Shown here in pieces: positions 35,388 to 41,834 of a stretch of 64,000 nucleotides of DNA (position 1 is the first letter of the stretch; every line of letters begins with the position of its first letter). The stretch is taken from positions 1 through 64,000 of the forward strand of contig JAGNBF010000031.1 in NCBI GenBank assembly GCA_018004935.1. Reading direction: 5' to 3'. Under the pieces are notes generated by a model. The model searched no databases, was not told the origin of the DNA, and worked only from the letters and a program-made list of their open reading frames with translations. This DNA is from Chloroflexota bacterium (GTDB taxonomy: Bacteria > Chloroflexota > Anaerolineae > Promineifilales > Promineifilaceae). The translations under genes and the position numbers were made by a program.

Positions 35388-36629
35388 ATGAAACCTGTAT
35401 CGTTTCCGGAAGATTTTGTTTGGCCTGATTATCAGGGGGGTTCTATTGCTAATGTGGCCCCAACCGCGGCCGCGTTGCTTCACATTCCTTTCATAGGGTT
35501 GCCACCATTGCGGGATACCTTTTGGCACGCGCTGGCCGGTGACATTCGCCGTGTTATTGTGTTCACGTTAGATGCATTAGGCTGGAATCTAATCCAGCAG
35601 GAACAAGAAGCTCTGACCAGCTTGTTGCAACAAGCGAAAACGGTGGCCAAAATCACATCTGTATTCCCTTCCACGACGGTGAATGCGTTGTCTAGTATCT
35701 GGACAGGAGCCGCACCGGCACAACATGGTCTGGTAGCTCTCCGTATGTTAATGCCGGATCAGGCAGTGTTAGGCAATATGATTAGCTGGGGAGCCAATTT
35801 TACCTGGGGTGAAGAAACGTTGGTGAAAGCGGGTGTAGACCCGGAAAAATTTCTGGCCGTGCCTGGGGTGGCGGAACAATTCGCGGCCGCGGGCGTACCT
35901 ACCTATGACTTTAAATCCTATGCCTTTGTGGATTCCCCGCTGAGCAAAATGCATGGTCGCGGGGTCAAAAAGCGGTACGGTATTCGCAGTATGGCCGATA
36001 TGGTGGTTCAGATTCGCCAACTTCTGGAATCCCAGCCCGACACCCCCATGTATATTTCGGCTTATTGGCATGAAGTGGATAACCTGAGTCATTACCGTGG
36101 GCCACATCATGAGACAACGGCCGCGGAAGTCAGAACGGTTCTGCATTTGATTGAAGAAGAACTGATAGGACGAACCAACGCGGCCGCACGTAATCACACC
36201 GCAGTTTTCATCATTGCCGATCATGGTCAAATCGTTACCCCACCCGAGCAGTTCATTCATCTGGATGGACATCCCGAACTACAAAAAATGCTCTTTATGC
36301 GTCCTGCCGGTGAACCACGCGTGACCAACTTCTATGCCCGGCATGGTTGTGTGGAAGACGTAATAGCCTATCTGCGTACTTATCTGGGCCATGCCATTTG
36401 GGCTATCCGTGCGGATGAAGCCCTGGAAATGGGGTTGTATGGATCTCCGCCCTACGCCCCAGATGTAGCCCACCGATTAGGCGATGTGATTGCTGTAACC
36501 CGTGCTGGTTATGGTCTATTCCCCCCAGATGAAAAAGAAAAAGCAGCCAAAATGATTGGTCGCCATGCTGGTTTAACCGTAGCGGAAATGGAAGCTCCCT
36601 TCCTCGGTTTCCGTTTGGATCAACCATAA
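35388..36629 (+). CDS. Alkaline-phosphatase-superfamily phosphodiesterase
   Basis: A 413-residue cytoplasmic enzyme of the nucleotide pyrophosphatase/phosphodiesterase type. Metal-binding and catalytic elements are in order: FTLDALGWNL (first Asp, about residue 63), FPSTTVNALSS (Thr nucleophile, about 95-105), YWHEVDNLSHYRG (Asp/His ligands, about 225) and IIADHGQI (Asp-His pair, about 277). There is no signal peptide, which is unusual for the superfamily. It could act on nucleotide, phospholipid or phosphoglycan substrates; none can be chosen. The next gene makes phospholipid headgroup links, hinting at lipid metabolism. SD AAAGGA precedes ATG. Confidence 0.9.
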   Translation: MKPVSFPEDFVWPDYQGGSIANVAPTAAALLHIPFIGLPPLRDTFWHALAGDIRRVIVFTLDALGWNLIQQEQEALTSLLQQAKTVAKITSVFPSTTVNALSSIWTGAAPAQHGLVALRMLMPDQAVLGNMISWGANFTWGEETLVKAGVDPEKFLAVPGVAEQFAAAGVPTYDFKSYAFVDSPLSKMHGRGVKKRYGIRSMADMVVQIRQLLESQPDTPMYISAYWHEVDNLSHYRGPHHETTAAEVRTVLHLIEEELIGRTNAAARNHTAVFIIADHGQIVTPPEQFIHLDGHPELQKMLFMRPAGEPRVTNFYARHGCVEDVIAYLRTYLGHAIWAIRADEALEMGLYGSPPYAPDVAHRLGDVIAVTRAGYGLFPPDEKEKAAKMIGRHAGLTVAEMEAPFLGFRLDQP

Positions 36630-36949: not shown

Positions 36950-37588
36950 ATGGAACCTGTAAAAACACACCCAATAACTTCTGCCCCCCAGCCGCGTGTT
37001 ACCCTGACAGACCATTTACGGGCACGAACGGCCATAATCATTAACCCAACCGTTGAGTTTCTAGCGCGTTGGCGGTTTACTCCGGATGGCCTGACCATTA
37101 CCGGGATGTTGTTTCACTTCTTCTTTGCCTGGCTCATTGCTACGGGGCATTCAATTGAGGCGGGTATTGCGATCATGTTTATTGCTCCTCTGGATGCACT
37201 GGATGGGGCATTGGCGCGGAAATTGGGGCGGAAGCAGGGTGGATTTGGGGCTTTTTTGGATTCAACCCTGGATCGCCTGGCTGAGATCATCCTATTTGGC
37301 GGTTATATGTTGTACTTCAGTCGAGAAGGGGCCGGGTTATGGCAGGCCGTGGCTTACCTGGCGATCACCGGTTCTCTTATGGTGAGTTACGCCCGGTCAC
37401 GCGCCGAAGCTTTGAACCTGGAATGTAAAATCGGTATTGCCAGCCGGGTTGAGCGTTATATCATCATCATCGTTACCCTTCTGCTGAACCTGCCTGAGGT
37501 GGGATTGCTTATTTTGGCAGTGACAACTTACATTACCCTTGTCCAACGCATCTGGCATGTCTGGAAGCAAACACGACCGGCTGAGTGA
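36950..37588 (+). CDS. CDP-alcohol phosphatidyltransferase
   Basis: A 212-residue membrane enzyme joining a CDP-activated lipid to an alcohol. The family signature D-x2-D-G-x2-A-R-x(8-9)-G-x3-D-x3-D is complete: PLDALDGALAR followed by GAFLDSTLD (about residues 78-109). About six helices surround it. It is of the PgsA/PIS type; the alcohol (glycerol-3-phosphate, inositol phosphate or other) is not readable. It lies between the AP-superfamily phosphodiesterase and lgt, a small membrane-lipid neighbourhood. Confidence 0.94.
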   Translation: MEPVKTHPITSAPQPRVTLTDHLRARTAIIINPTVEFLARWRFTPDGLTITGMLFHFFFAWLIATGHSIEAGIAIMFIAPLDALDGALARKLGRKQGGFGAFLDSTLDRLAEIILFGGYMLYFSREGAGLWQAVAYLAITGSLMVSYARSRAEALNLECKIGIASRVERYIIIIVTLLLNLPEVGLLILAVTTYITLVQRIWHVWKQTRPAE

Positions 37589-37750: not shown

Positions 37751-38950
37751 ATGACAATACGTTCTTTATTTCGTGCCGAACCCTATTGGTACATTATCAT
37801 TCTGTTTTGGCTGGTGACTGGGGGTGTTTATATAGCCCATCTGGTTTCTGGCTGGATGCCTGACCGAGTCATCATAAATCTGCCGCTTTTTGGAACTGAT
37901 TTCCCTGTGTACTGGTATGGCGTAGTTATTATGGCGGGGGTGACATTGGGGGCTTATGTGGCTTCCCGGTTAGCTTATAACCGTGCTTTAACTATCTTTG
38001 TGGCGACTGTTCCCGCCCATATACGGGATAAAGGGTTGACTGCACTGGCATTACCAGGAGATATTCGTACTGCCCTGGCTCAAAACAACATCACAACCTT
38101 GGGGCATTTGCTCTTATTATGGGGATTTAACCCGGATTTGTTGGGGTTAAAGCGAGGTGGGGTAAAAACGGTGCGTGAGGCACTCGCGGCCGCGAACCTT
38201 GACCCTCTCTGGATTGGTGACGATTCTCCCTGGCGCCAATGGAACCCCGATTATGTCTGGGGAGGCGTGGGTGTTTGCCTGGTACTGGGCGTAATAGGTG
38301 CACGCCTCTACCACGTGATGACCCCATCGCCCAGTATGGCCGCTATCGGCATTACCTCACCTTTAGATTACTTTCGCAACCCCATGCAATTGATCAACAT
38401 CCGTAATGGGGGTTTGGGTATTTATGGTGGCATTATTGGGGGCGTGTTAGGCTTGTTCTGGTACACCCGACGGCATCGCCTCCCTTTATTGGCCTGGGCC
38501 GATCTGGCCGCGATTGGTCTGACGTTGGGGCAAATGATGGGGCGCTGGGGCAACTTCTTTAACCAGGAGCTATATGGTAGTCCTACAAATCTGCCCTGGG
38601 CAGTTACGATTAATCCCAATAACCGTCTACCCGCCTATGCCGACGTAGAACAGTTTCATCCAGCCTTTCTTTACGAATCTCTGTGGAGCCTGATGACCTT
38701 TCTTGTCTTGTATGCCCTGGCTAAACGTTATACCAGCAAAATACAGCCGGGAGAGCTGACTGCCCTTTACCTGATTTTTTATGGGGTGGGACGTACTTTG
38801 CTAGAAATTGTGCGGCTAGATAGCCGTACCGTCTCTCTGGGGGGTGTTGATATCCATTTGCCTGTGGCTACCCTTATTTCCCTGGTAATAGCCGTTGTGA
38901 TGGGCATTTGGCTGATTGTGCGCCGCCGCAATGTGCATTTTAAGGCATAG
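37751..38950 (+). CDS. lgt: Prolipoprotein diacylglyceryl transferase with inserted helical domain
   Basis: A 399-residue inner-membrane enzyme that moves diacylglycerol from phosphatidylglycerol to the lipobox Cys. The Lgt signature GRWGNFFNQELYG (about residues 276-288), the N-terminal FPVYWYGVVIMAGV and FLYESLW are intact. Between TM helices, residues about 85-150 form a soluble insertion not usual in Lgt: a helix-hairpin-helix-like run ALPGDIRTALAQNNITTLG...LGLKRGGVKTVREALAAANL that resembles the RNA polymerase alpha C-terminal domain. Normal Lgt is about 260-300 residues, so the insertion explains most of the extra length. A candidate lipoprotein substrate is encoded at 60723-61597. Confidence 0.95.
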   Translation: MTIRSLFRAEPYWYIIILFWLVTGGVYIAHLVSGWMPDRVIINLPLFGTDFPVYWYGVVIMAGVTLGAYVASRLAYNRALTIFVATVPAHIRDKGLTALALPGDIRTALAQNNITTLGHLLLLWGFNPDLLGLKRGGVKTVREALAAANLDPLWIGDDSPWRQWNPDYVWGGVGVCLVLGVIGARLYHVMTPSPSMAAIGITSPLDYFRNPMQLINIRNGGLGIYGGIIGGVLGLFWYTRRHRLPLLAWADLAAIGLTLGQMMGRWGNFFNQELYGSPTNLPWAVTINPNNRLPAYADVEQFHPAFLYESLWSLMTFLVLYALAKRYTSKIQPGELTALYLIFYGVGRTLLEIVRLDSRTVSLGGVDIHLPVATLISLVIAVVMGIWLIVRRRNVHFKA

Positions 38951-39411: not shown

Positions 39412-40329
39412 ATGATTGATGCTGAACATTTGGCCAAACAGTTTGATGATTTTGTGGCCGTGCATGATGTTTCTTTGCATGTGCCGCAAGGGGAATTACT
39501 GGCTTTGTTAGGGCCGAATGGGGCAGGGAAGACCACAACTGTGCGCATTTTGAGTGCGATTCTGCGACCAACCCGCGGCCGCGCTTCCCTGGCTGGTTAT
39601 GACACGGTGCAACAAGCCGATCAGGTGCGCCGCTCTGTGGGTTTGTTGACCGAACAGCCCGGTCTCTATGACCGGATGACAGGGATTGAATATCTGCAAT
39701 TTTATGGCCGTCTTTATGGCCTTTCTGATGCGCAGAGTAAAAAGCGAAGCCAGCAAATGTTTGAACGTTTTGCCATGCCCGGAGCCGAAGTCCGCCGCCT
39801 GGGCGAATATTCCAAAGGTATGCGCCAAAAAGTGGGCCTCATTCGCGCCTTGTTGCATGATCCGCCCGTTTTATTGCTCGATGAACCCACCTCTGCGATG
39901 GATCCCCATAGTGCTCGCCTGGTGCGTGATGCCATTTATGAACTTCGCCATGATCACCGCACTGTCATTCTCTGTACCCACAACTTATATGAGGCCGAAA
40001 GCCTGGCCGACCGCATTGCCATTATCCGGCAGGGGCGTATTCTTACTCAGGGAACACCTGCCTGGTTGAAGCAGGAGTTATTGGGTTTGCCACAGATGGA
40101 AGTGAAGCTAGATCGCTCCCTCAATGGTCAGGTAAAAGAACTTAATGACCTGGTAACTGTGGAATATTTTGCTGGGGATACGATTCGCTACCGGGCCGAG
40201 CGGCCGCAAATCGTCAACCCTCTATTGGTGCGTCGTCTCCATGAGTTGGGGCTAGGTGTGGTTGGCCTCTACGAAGTACCTCAGAGTTTGGAAGAGGTGT
40301 ATTTACGCGTAGTGAGTGGGGAAAAATAA
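39412..40329 (+). CDS. ABC transporter ATP-binding protein
   Basis: A 305-residue nucleotide-binding subunit of an ABC-2 type exporter. Walker A GPNGAGKTTT (about residues 38-47), Q-loop EQPGLYDRMT, signature YSKGMRQKVG (about 137-146), Walker B VLLLDEPTSAMDP and the H-loop THN are complete. The C-terminal 80 residues are the accessory domain seen in CcmA/DrrA-type ATPases. SD AAGGAG lies before ATG. The gene for its permease follows after 50 bases. The substrate is unknown. Confidence 0.96.
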   Translation: MIDAEHLAKQFDDFVAVHDVSLHVPQGELLALLGPNGAGKTTTVRILSAILRPTRGRASLAGYDTVQQADQVRRSVGLLTEQPGLYDRMTGIEYLQFYGRLYGLSDAQSKKRSQQMFERFAMPGAEVRRLGEYSKGMRQKVGLIRALLHDPPVLLLDEPTSAMDPHSARLVRDAIYELRHDHRTVILCTHNLYEAESLADRIAIIRQGRILTQGTPAWLKQELLGLPQMEVKLDRSLNGQVKELNDLVTVEYFAGDTIRYRAERPQIVNPLLVRRLHELGLGVVGLYEVPQSLEEVYLRVVSGEK

Positions 40330-40379: not shown

Positions 40380-41834
40380 ATGGCTACCCTGACATCCTCT
40401 TTGCCTGTAACGCGTCATGACTGGCAGATGGCATCAATTATTGCTCGTCGGGAAATACGAGATTCTTTCCGGGATTGGCGTATTGTTGTGCCCACCGTTT
40501 TCCTGACCCTCATGTTTCCTAGTTTGATGAATTTTACGGCTGATCGGATTTTAAGTCTGGCTTCCCGCTACAACCCTGAAATGATTGCCGACCGGCTTTT
40601 TCCCTTTCTGCTGATGGTCGTAGGGTTTTTCCCGGCGTCTTTTTCGTTGGTAATTGCCCTGGAAACGTTTGTGGGGGAAAAAGAGCGCAAAAGCCTGGAA
40701 CCTCTCTTGGCGGCTCCTTTAACCAATACCCAACTTTATCTGGGTAAGATGCTGGCCGCCCTGTGCCCGCCGCTTCTTGCCAGCTATTTGGGCATAACTG
40801 TTTATACGGTAGGCCTGTGGCTCACTGAGGACACCGTGGTGCCATTTGGTCTGTTTGCGCTTGTTGTCTTGCTGACAACTGTGCAAGCTATGGTGATGGT
40901 TGCCGGAGCCGTTGTGGCCTCTACCCAAACGACCAGTGTCCGGGCCGCTAATCTGTTAGCCAGTTTCATTATCATTCCCATGGCTCTATTGCTACAGTTT
41001 GAGGCCGCGATGATGTTTATTGGCAATCGTGAGGGGATGTGGTGGATTTTGTTGGCATTGGTTATTGTGTTGGTGGTGTTGGTGCGGATGGGTGTGAAGA
41101 TGTTTAACCGGGAGGAGTTGCTGGGCCGGGAACTAGATCAGTTGCAACTGGGAGCGATGGGGCGGCGGTTCTGGCACCGGTTTCGCGGCCGCGATACTGG
41201 TGCGACTACCCCTTTATCCTGGTACCGGGAAACCTTTGGTTTGTTAAAGGCTTTACGTGCCCCGGCCTTGATTTTAGGGGGAGCTTTTGGGCTGGCCCTG
41301 GTGTTAGGGTATTACATGACACAGCGGTACGGCTTACCAAAAGAGTTATACAATTCGCTAACCGGGGAAAACCGGCAACAATATCTATATAATCTTCAAC
41401 TGTTGGCGAATCAATTGCCGTTTACTATTTTCTGGCACAATGTGCGGGCACTCTTACTCATTGCTTTTTTGGGTATATTCTCTATTGGTATGGCCGATAT
41501 TGTTTTTTTTGCCCTGCCCTGGGTTGTCTTGAGCCTGGTGGCTTTGCCCATCGCGGCCGCAGGAGAAAGCCCACTGGTCTTTATCTTGGCTACTGTCGTG
41601 CCTCATGGGGTGGTGGAAATACCGGCCTTAGTGCTCGCGGCCGCGGGTGCCATTCGTTGGCACACAGTCGTTATTGCCCCACCCCCGGAACGTAGTTTAA
41701 GCGAAAGTTGGGTGCTCGCGGCCGCGGACTACTTTCGCATCTTTATTGGCCTTGTCATTCCCTTACTCTTCCTGGCTGGCTTATTGGAAGCCTACCTGAC
41801 CCCCCAGATTTTGCTCCGTGTTTACGGAAACTGA
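40380..41834 (+). CDS. ABC-2 permease fused to SpoIIM-like domain
   Basis: A 484-residue membrane protein. Residues about 1-240 are an ABC-2 permease half: a cytoplasmic start RREIRDSFRDWRIV, then six helices with GEKERKSLEPLLAAPL, the coupling-helix motif of this family. Residues about 300-484 carry further helices with VVPHGVVEIPALVLAAAGA, the signature of SpoIIM/DUF95 proteins. A charged linker (about 240-290) joins them. The transporter pairs with the ATPase upstream. Three GCGGCCGC sites encode Ala-Ala-Ala in the SpoIIM-like part. The domain pair suggests export linked to a membrane-shape or envelope function (inference). Confidence 0.88.
   Translation: MATLTSSLPVTRHDWQMASIIARREIRDSFRDWRIVVPTVFLTLMFPSLMNFTADRILSLASRYNPEMIADRLFPFLLMVVGFFPASFSLVIALETFVGEKERKSLEPLLAAPLTNTQLYLGKMLAALCPPLLASYLGITVYTVGLWLTEDTVVPFGLFALVVLLTTVQAMVMVAGAVVASTQTTSVRAANLLASFIIIPMALLLQFEAAMMFIGNREGMWWILLALVIVLVVLVRMGVKMFNREELLGRELDQLQLGAMGRRFWHRFRGRDTGATTPLSWYRETFGLLKALRAPALILGGAFGLALVLGYYMTQRYGLPKELYNSLTGENRQQYLYNLQLLANQLPFTIFWHNVRALLLIAFLGIFSIGMADIVFFALPWVVLSLVALPIAAAGESPLVFILATVVPHGVVEIPALVLAAAGAIRWHTVVIAPPPERSLSESWVLAAADYFRIFIGLVIPLLFLAGLLEAYLTPQILLRVYGN

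What the first reader, a model, noticed from the sequence alone, without database searches (positions are those of the whole stretch)
37751..38950. Lgt with an inserted RNA-polymerase-alpha-CTD-like helical domain
Residues about 85-150 read as a helix-hairpin-helix domain (LPGDIRTALAQNNITTLG...LKRGGVKTVREALAAANL), like the alpha C-terminal domain, placed between membrane helices of an otherwise normal Lgt. I know of no such domain in this enzyme. It could dock a partner or the lipid-modification machinery.
Basis: partly seen in the sequence, partly recalled or inferred. Interest (0 to 1): 0.65.

Follow-up and report, generated by a model that had tools for sequence, protein, structure and literature searches.

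The report
Lipoprotein enzyme carrying an RNA-polymerase-like domain
In one family of Chloroflexota bacteria, the membrane enzyme that starts lipoprotein anchoring (Lgt) carries an extra 84-residue domain on its inner face, predicted to fold like the tail of the RNA polymerase alpha subunit; it most likely works as a docking handle, but what it binds is unknown.

Summary
Window 37751-38950 (+) encodes a 399-aa Lgt. An 84-residue block (about residues 81-164) sits between the first two core membrane helices. Predicted alone it reaches pLDDT 94, and its PDB matches are almost all RNA polymerase alpha C-terminal domains. The full model is an ordinary Lgt plus this domain.

It is no assembly quirk. 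Forty of 52 searched genomes of the same family carry the insert. The WYG-to-GAR loop is 41 residues in 65 relatives and 121-126 in 29 carriers. The sister family, with the same gene order, lacks it. By sequence profile the nearest relative is NusA's C-terminal HhH domain, then the alpha CTD. The alpha-CTD DNA-contact residues are not kept.

Lgt active-site residues are intact in all insert-bearing copies aligned. Five insertless copies of this gene within the family have degenerate active sites.

Best reading: an active Lgt with a cytoplasmic, NusA-AR2-like protein-docking module. Anatomy about 95% secure; docking about 55%; partner unknown. No description of such an Lgt was found in the papers searched. 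New variant of a known kind.

The parts
37751..38950 (+). lgt, 399 aa prolipoprotein diacylglyceryl transferase with inserted domain
37991..38242 (+). inserted block, residues 81-164 (84 residues), between E. coli-numbered TM1 and TM2, inferred cytoplasmic
   Evidence: alignment to insertless orthologues and loop-length survey
38015..38200 (+). dual helix-hairpin-helix, alpha-CTD/NusA-AR2-like core, residues 89-150
   Evidence: AF2 pLDDT 94; VIA Z 8.6 to 1z3e_B; hhalign to NusA HhH P 5e-10
38210..38242 (+). Trp-rich C-terminal flank of the insert (W154, W161, W164 invariant in 28 of 28), leading into TM2
37913..38008 (+). continuous helix residues 55-86: TM1 (with the Y26-equivalent Y56) running on into the insert
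37781..37849 (+). extra N-terminal membrane helix, residues 11-33, shared with the sister family but absent from more distant Lgts
38540..38578 (+). Lgt signature GRWGNFFNQELYG with R265, N268, E273, G276 (E. coli R143, N146, E151, G154)
36950..37588 (+). CDP-alcohol phosphatidyltransferase, syntenic with lgt across the class
39412..40329 (+). ABC transporter ATP-binding protein, syntenic with lgt
   Evidence: family assigned from reading the sequence
40380..41834 (+). ABC transporter permease-like protein, syntenic with lgt
   Evidence: family assigned from reading the sequence
35388..36629 (+). phosphodiesterase/nucleotide pyrophosphatase-like protein (PF01663), commonly upstream of the lgt locus in the family

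Best explanation
The gene encodes a catalytically competent Lgt. In the ancestor of this bacterial family it acquired an 84-residue dual-HhH domain of the NusA-AR2/alpha-CTD type in the cytoplasmic loop between TM1 and TM2 (E. coli numbering). Shown or strongly computed: the insertion, its fold, its retention across the family, its position between the two halves of the membrane core, and intact catalytic residues. Inferred: the domain lies in the cytoplasm; it does not bind DNA as alpha CTD does; and it serves as a protein-docking module that brings Lgt to a cytoplasmic-side partner, for example the translocation or translation machinery delivering prolipoproteins. Catalysis itself would proceed in the membrane cavity as in E. 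coli Lgt.
For: Fold: AF2 of the insert pLDDT 94. Foldseek and VIA hits are almost entirely RNAP alpha CTD, best 1z3e_B Z 8.6 over 66 residues at 2.3 A. The full model matches E. coli Lgt 5azb (E 4.4e-8, TMt 0.74) and separately alpha CTD 3k4g. Homology: the insert profile, searched over 52 family genomes, finds besides the Lgts mainly weak hits in the NusA and RpoA HhH domains (sampled ORFs read as NusA and RpoA). hhalign P is 5e-10 to NusA HhH and 3e-6 to RpoA CTD, against 0.03 or worse for shuffled columns and 0.003 or worse for unrelated windows. Docking rather than DNA: the R265 position is acidic in 22 of 28 and the N268 position is Asn in only 1 of 28. NusA AR2, a dual HhH, is a protein-binding domain that contacts alpha CTD and SuhB (PMC6614801). 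Retention and selection. Competence: Y26, R143, N146, E151, G154, R239, E243, R246 equivalents invariant in 27 of 27 insert-bearing copies. Within the family, insertless syntenic copies have lost Y26 and others of these residues, so at this locus the insert goes with an intact enzyme.
Against: No partner is identified. The Foldseek E-values for the insert are weak (best 0.085), as expected for a small domain, and its best VIA Z (8.6) is only at the edge of the range the tool calls middling. The insert evolves faster than the core (37% against 65% identity) and, beyond hydrophobic core positions and the Trp flank, no conserved surface patch was demonstrated. Insertless orthologues with intact active sites in the sister family and the rest of the class show that the domain is not needed for Lgt chemistry.
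Confidence: 0.55

Rival explanations
1. Structural brace or hinge: the domain clamps the cytoplasmic ends of TM1 (major TM domain) and TM2 (minor TM domain), tuning the opening of the cavity between them, with no external partner.
For: The insert joins exactly the two TM domains between which the E. coli cavity lies (PMC4728403). TM1 runs as one helix into the insert (residues 55-86), and the full model has a high pTM, 0.90. The Trp-rich flank next to TM2 is the most conserved part.
Against: An HhH fold related to NusA and alpha docking domains is an odd choice for a mere spacer. Sister-family enzymes keep intact active sites with a short loop.
Confidence: 0.2
2. Neutral ornament: a domain acquired by chance that is kept folded only because misfolding would harm an important membrane enzyme.
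For: Faster evolution than the core, dN/dS 0.14-0.45 against 0.03-0.21. The sister family lacks it and appears to be active.
Against: Retained across the family with a precise loop length (125-126 residues in 28 of 29 carriers, 121 in the other). The losses seen within the family accompany loss of the active site.
Confidence: 0.18
3. Nucleic-acid tether: the domain binds DNA or RNA as alpha CTD does and anchors the membrane enzyme near the nucleoid or nascent transcripts.
For: The fold is that of a minor-groove-binding domain, and some members are basic (up to 19 K+R against 8 D+E).
Against: The DNA-contacting Arg position (R265, PMC5101437) is acidic in 22 of 28 and the N268 position is Asn in only 1 of 28. 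Net charge varies from +11 to -6 across members.
Confidence: 0.07

Closest known systems
Escherichia coli Lgt (5azb/5azc)
   Same: Overall fold, signature motif, Y26/R143/N146/E151/G154/R239 equivalents, cavity between minor and major TM domains
   Different: Window protein has an 84-residue insert inferred to be cytoplasmic, an extra N-terminal membrane helix, and Tyr in place of H103 (also Tyr in Firmicutes, PMC13251419)
NusA C-terminal HhH domain (AR2 type)
   Same: Dual-HhH fold; best profile-profile match (P 5e-10 over 63 columns)
   Different: Inserted in a membrane enzyme; Trp-rich C-terminal flank; second hairpin lacks the usual GxGxK motif
RNA polymerase alpha subunit C-terminal domain (PF03118)
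   Same: Nearly all PDB fold matches; shared helix arrangement
   Different: Scores below the Pfam cut-off; DNA-contact residues not conserved
Mycobacterium tuberculosis Lgt with C-terminal extension
   Same: Another Lgt with an added segment
   Different: That extension is terminal and has no known homology (PMC13251419); this one is an internal folded HhH domain

Membership tests
Lgt (PF01790, TIGR00544) | Curated profile score above cut-off | tested here: met
   PF01790 205.1 bits (cut-off 24.9), TIGR00544 152.9 (cut-off 118.9)
Lgt (PF01790, TIGR00544) | Essential residues Y26, R143, N146, G154, R239 | tested here: met
   Y56, R265, N268, G276, R348; invariant in 27 of 27 insert-bearing copies
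Lgt (PF01790, TIGR00544) | H103 (essential in E. coli, but not a universal feature of the family) | tested here: not met
   Y225. H103 is Tyr in Firmicutes and Trp in Actinobacteria (PMC13251419), so it does not define the family and its absence does not exclude membership
Lgt (PF01790, TIGR00544) | Lgt fold | tested here: met
   5azb is the only significant PDB match of the full model
Lgt (PF01790, TIGR00544) | Diacylglyceryl transfer activity | not testable with these tools
   needs complementation or an assay
RNA polymerase alpha CTD (PF03118) | Pfam score above cut-off for the insert | tested here: not met
   No hit in the window insert; 3 of 26 relatives match weakly, best E 0.061
RNA polymerase alpha CTD (PF03118) | Alpha-CTD fold | tested here: met
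   VIA Z up to 8.6; list dominated by alpha CTD, on a predicted model
RNA polymerase alpha CTD (PF03118) | DNA-contact residues (R265, N268) | tested here: not met
   R265 position acidic in 22 of 28; N268 position Asn in 1 of 28
NusA AR2-type HhH domain | Significant profile-profile similarity to NusA HhH | tested here: met
   hhalign P 5e-10, prob 96.6, 63 columns
NusA AR2-type HhH domain | Binds alpha CTD or another protein | not testable with these tools
   needs binding experiments

The most novel reading that the evidence does not exclude
The insert docks Lgt onto the cell's HhH-bearing gene-expression machinery (RNA polymerase alpha or NusA, or the ribosome through the L31-HhH fusion found in the same genomes). 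Lipoprotein modification would then be physically coupled to transcription or translation at the membrane.
Probability: 0.1. Interest if true: 0.85.

Novelty: new variant of a known kind. Interest (0 to 1): 0.56.

Why it matters
Lgt is a compact, widely essential membrane enzyme for which I found no described cytoplasmic domain. A whole bacterial family keeps a transcription-factor-type protein-docking fold on its inner face. This offers a natural handle for asking whether lipoprotein modification is recruited to export or gene-expression machinery. The lineages without the insert, which have also lost the active site, are a ready comparison.

Tried and rejected
Direct Pfam, NCBIfam and PDB sequence searches with the single insert gave nothing significant; only the family profile and the fold revealed the relationship. 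The PDB profile search gave only sub-threshold hits, two of the six to HhH-type domains (RAD51C N-terminal domain 0.032, alpha CTD 1doq 0.66). Apparent long Lgts elsewhere (e.g. L045, L070) are stop-to-stop reading frames running on upstream, not insertions. A first loop survey by HMM alignment lost the insertless sequences and was replaced. An assembly or frame artefact was rejected because independent genomes share the insert. A literature search for an Lgt with HhH or such an insertion found no paper, and terms for an added domain or insertion do not occur in the broad Lgt survey PMC13251419; subscription journals are not covered. The packing of the insert against the membrane core was not judged because no PAE was available.

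Full report
What is there. Window 37751-38950 (+) is a 399-aa ORF with an ATG start. It scores far above the Lgt cut-offs (PF01790 1.4e-60; TIGR00544 152.9 bits), but the main Pfam stretch starts only at residue 167, because a block is inserted before it. Alignment with relatives shows an added block at residues 81-164, between the helix that carries the Y26-equivalent (Y56) and the helix that carries GARLYHV.

How real it is. The same insert is found in relatives from the same GTDB-type family: 28 distinct sequences were aligned, and 40 of 52 family genomes carry it by profile search. In a 400-genome sample of the phylum, the only strong full-length matches are in this family. The other matches are weak and partial, mostly in reading frames of NusA length (about 630-840 aa) or RpoA length (about 330-470 aa). 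Frame identities outside the family are inferred from size; in family genomes sampled sequences were read. The spacing between the WYG and GAR motifs is 41 residues in 65 other sequences; it is 125 or 126 in 28 carriers and 121 in one more. The insert is under purifying selection (dN/dS 0.14-0.45), weaker than on the core.

Where it came in. The gene order CDP-alcohol phosphatidyltransferase, lgt, ABC ATPase, ABC permease is shared by carriers, by the insertless sister family and by more distant members of the class, so this is the ancestral lgt locus and not a paralogue moved in. A tree of the two neighbouring genes makes the family monophyletic (support 100) with the sister family outside. 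The simplest history is one gain in the family's ancestor.

A natural experiment. Five family members have the syntenic gene without the insert: L128, L194, L196, L197 and L198. All five have lost essential active-site residues: Y26 is replaced in all, R143 in four, N146 in two. In the neighbour-gene tree L128 is nested among carriers (support 94); the other four form a clade nested with weak support. L128's loop is 52 residues by my count from its sequence, 11 longer than the insertless norm, which would fit an incomplete deletion. Two of these genomes (G002, G005) were seen with another, ordinary Lgt. All 27 carriers in the full alignment keep the Y26, R143, N146, E151, G154, R239, E243 and R246 equivalents. 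Absence of the insert and loss of the active site therefore go together at this locus within the family; cause and order cannot be told.

What it folds as. Predicted on its own with 26 sequences the block reaches pLDDT 94, pTM 0.83. The PDB matches are almost all RNA polymerase alpha C-terminal domains, with RAD51-paralogue N-terminal HhH domains next. The best VIA value is Z 8.6, 66 residues, 2.3 A. Single values near 8 are not decisive by the tool's own note; what persuades is the consistency of the list together with the sequence-profile evidence. The full-length model (pLDDT 93.9, pTM 0.90) has E. coli Lgt 5azb as its only significant hit, and the alpha CTD as a separate local match.

Sequence relationship. 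The insert's profile, searched in the family's genomes, picks up weakly the C-terminal HhH of NusA and the CTD of RpoA (NusA confirmed, RpoA read). Profile-profile comparison gives P 5e-10 to NusA over 63 columns and 3e-6 to RpoA over 36, against at best 0.034 for column-shuffled inserts and 0.003 for unrelated alignments. NusA's domain is thus the nearest relative tested, although only three distinct NusA sequences were used.

How it probably works. In E. [quoted passage not shown] It follows that the TM1-TM2 loop is cytoplasmic. The basic N-terminus and C-terminus of the window protein and its extra N-terminal helix agree with this. The insert therefore hangs from TM1 and TM2 into the cytoplasm, and joins the major and minor TM domains. 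It lacks the alpha-CTD DNA-contact residues: the R265 position is acidic in 22 of 28 and the N268 position is Asn in only one, L004 (R265 as a contact: PMC5101437). NusA AR2 is a precedent for the same fold as a protein-binding device (PMC6614801). I therefore favour a docking module (about 55%), then a brace between the two TM halves (20%), neutral retention (18%) and a nucleic-acid tether (7%).

Known or new. Lgt itself is a known family; the internal alpha-CTD-like domain was not found described in the papers searched. Subscription literature was not searchable, so this is absence of evidence in an open-access library. I rate it a new variant of a known kind.

Noticed in passing
L135:1480-1983 (-), G000 contig C135; also L212, L218, L220, L215: Ribosomal protein L31 fused to a C-terminal alpha-CTD-like HhH domain (PF01197 + PF03118). 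The fusion was also read in the sister family and one other family; similar frames of about 150-175 aa with PF03118 hits occur in most genomes of the window's family.
   Followed up: partly
L136:802-2346 (+), G000 contig C62: A second, diverged DNA polymerase III beta clamp (515 aa reading frame) with an HhH/alpha-CTD-like segment inserted in its middle domain. None of the other 58 genomes searched has a full-length match; an ordinary-sized 395-aa DnaN frame is on C155.
   Followed up: partly
L128, L194, L196, L197, L198: Lgt-like proteins at the ancestral lgt locus that have lost Y26 and other essential residues: probable non-catalytic Lgt homologues kept in synteny.
   Followed up: partly
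window 37781-37849: An extra N-terminal membrane helix ahead of the Lgt core, present in this and the sister family and absent from the more distant Lgts aligned.
   Followed up: partly
G000 contigs C113, C151, C134, C218: The genome holds five PF01790 proteins in all; C113 (307 aa, next to an IMP-dehydrogenase-like gene) keeps most essential residues but has Leu at the H103 position.
   Followed up: no
G064 C138:97356-97781; G063 C1:44020-44763: Large reading frames (913 and 2901 aa) with two alpha-CTD-like hits each.
   Followed up: no
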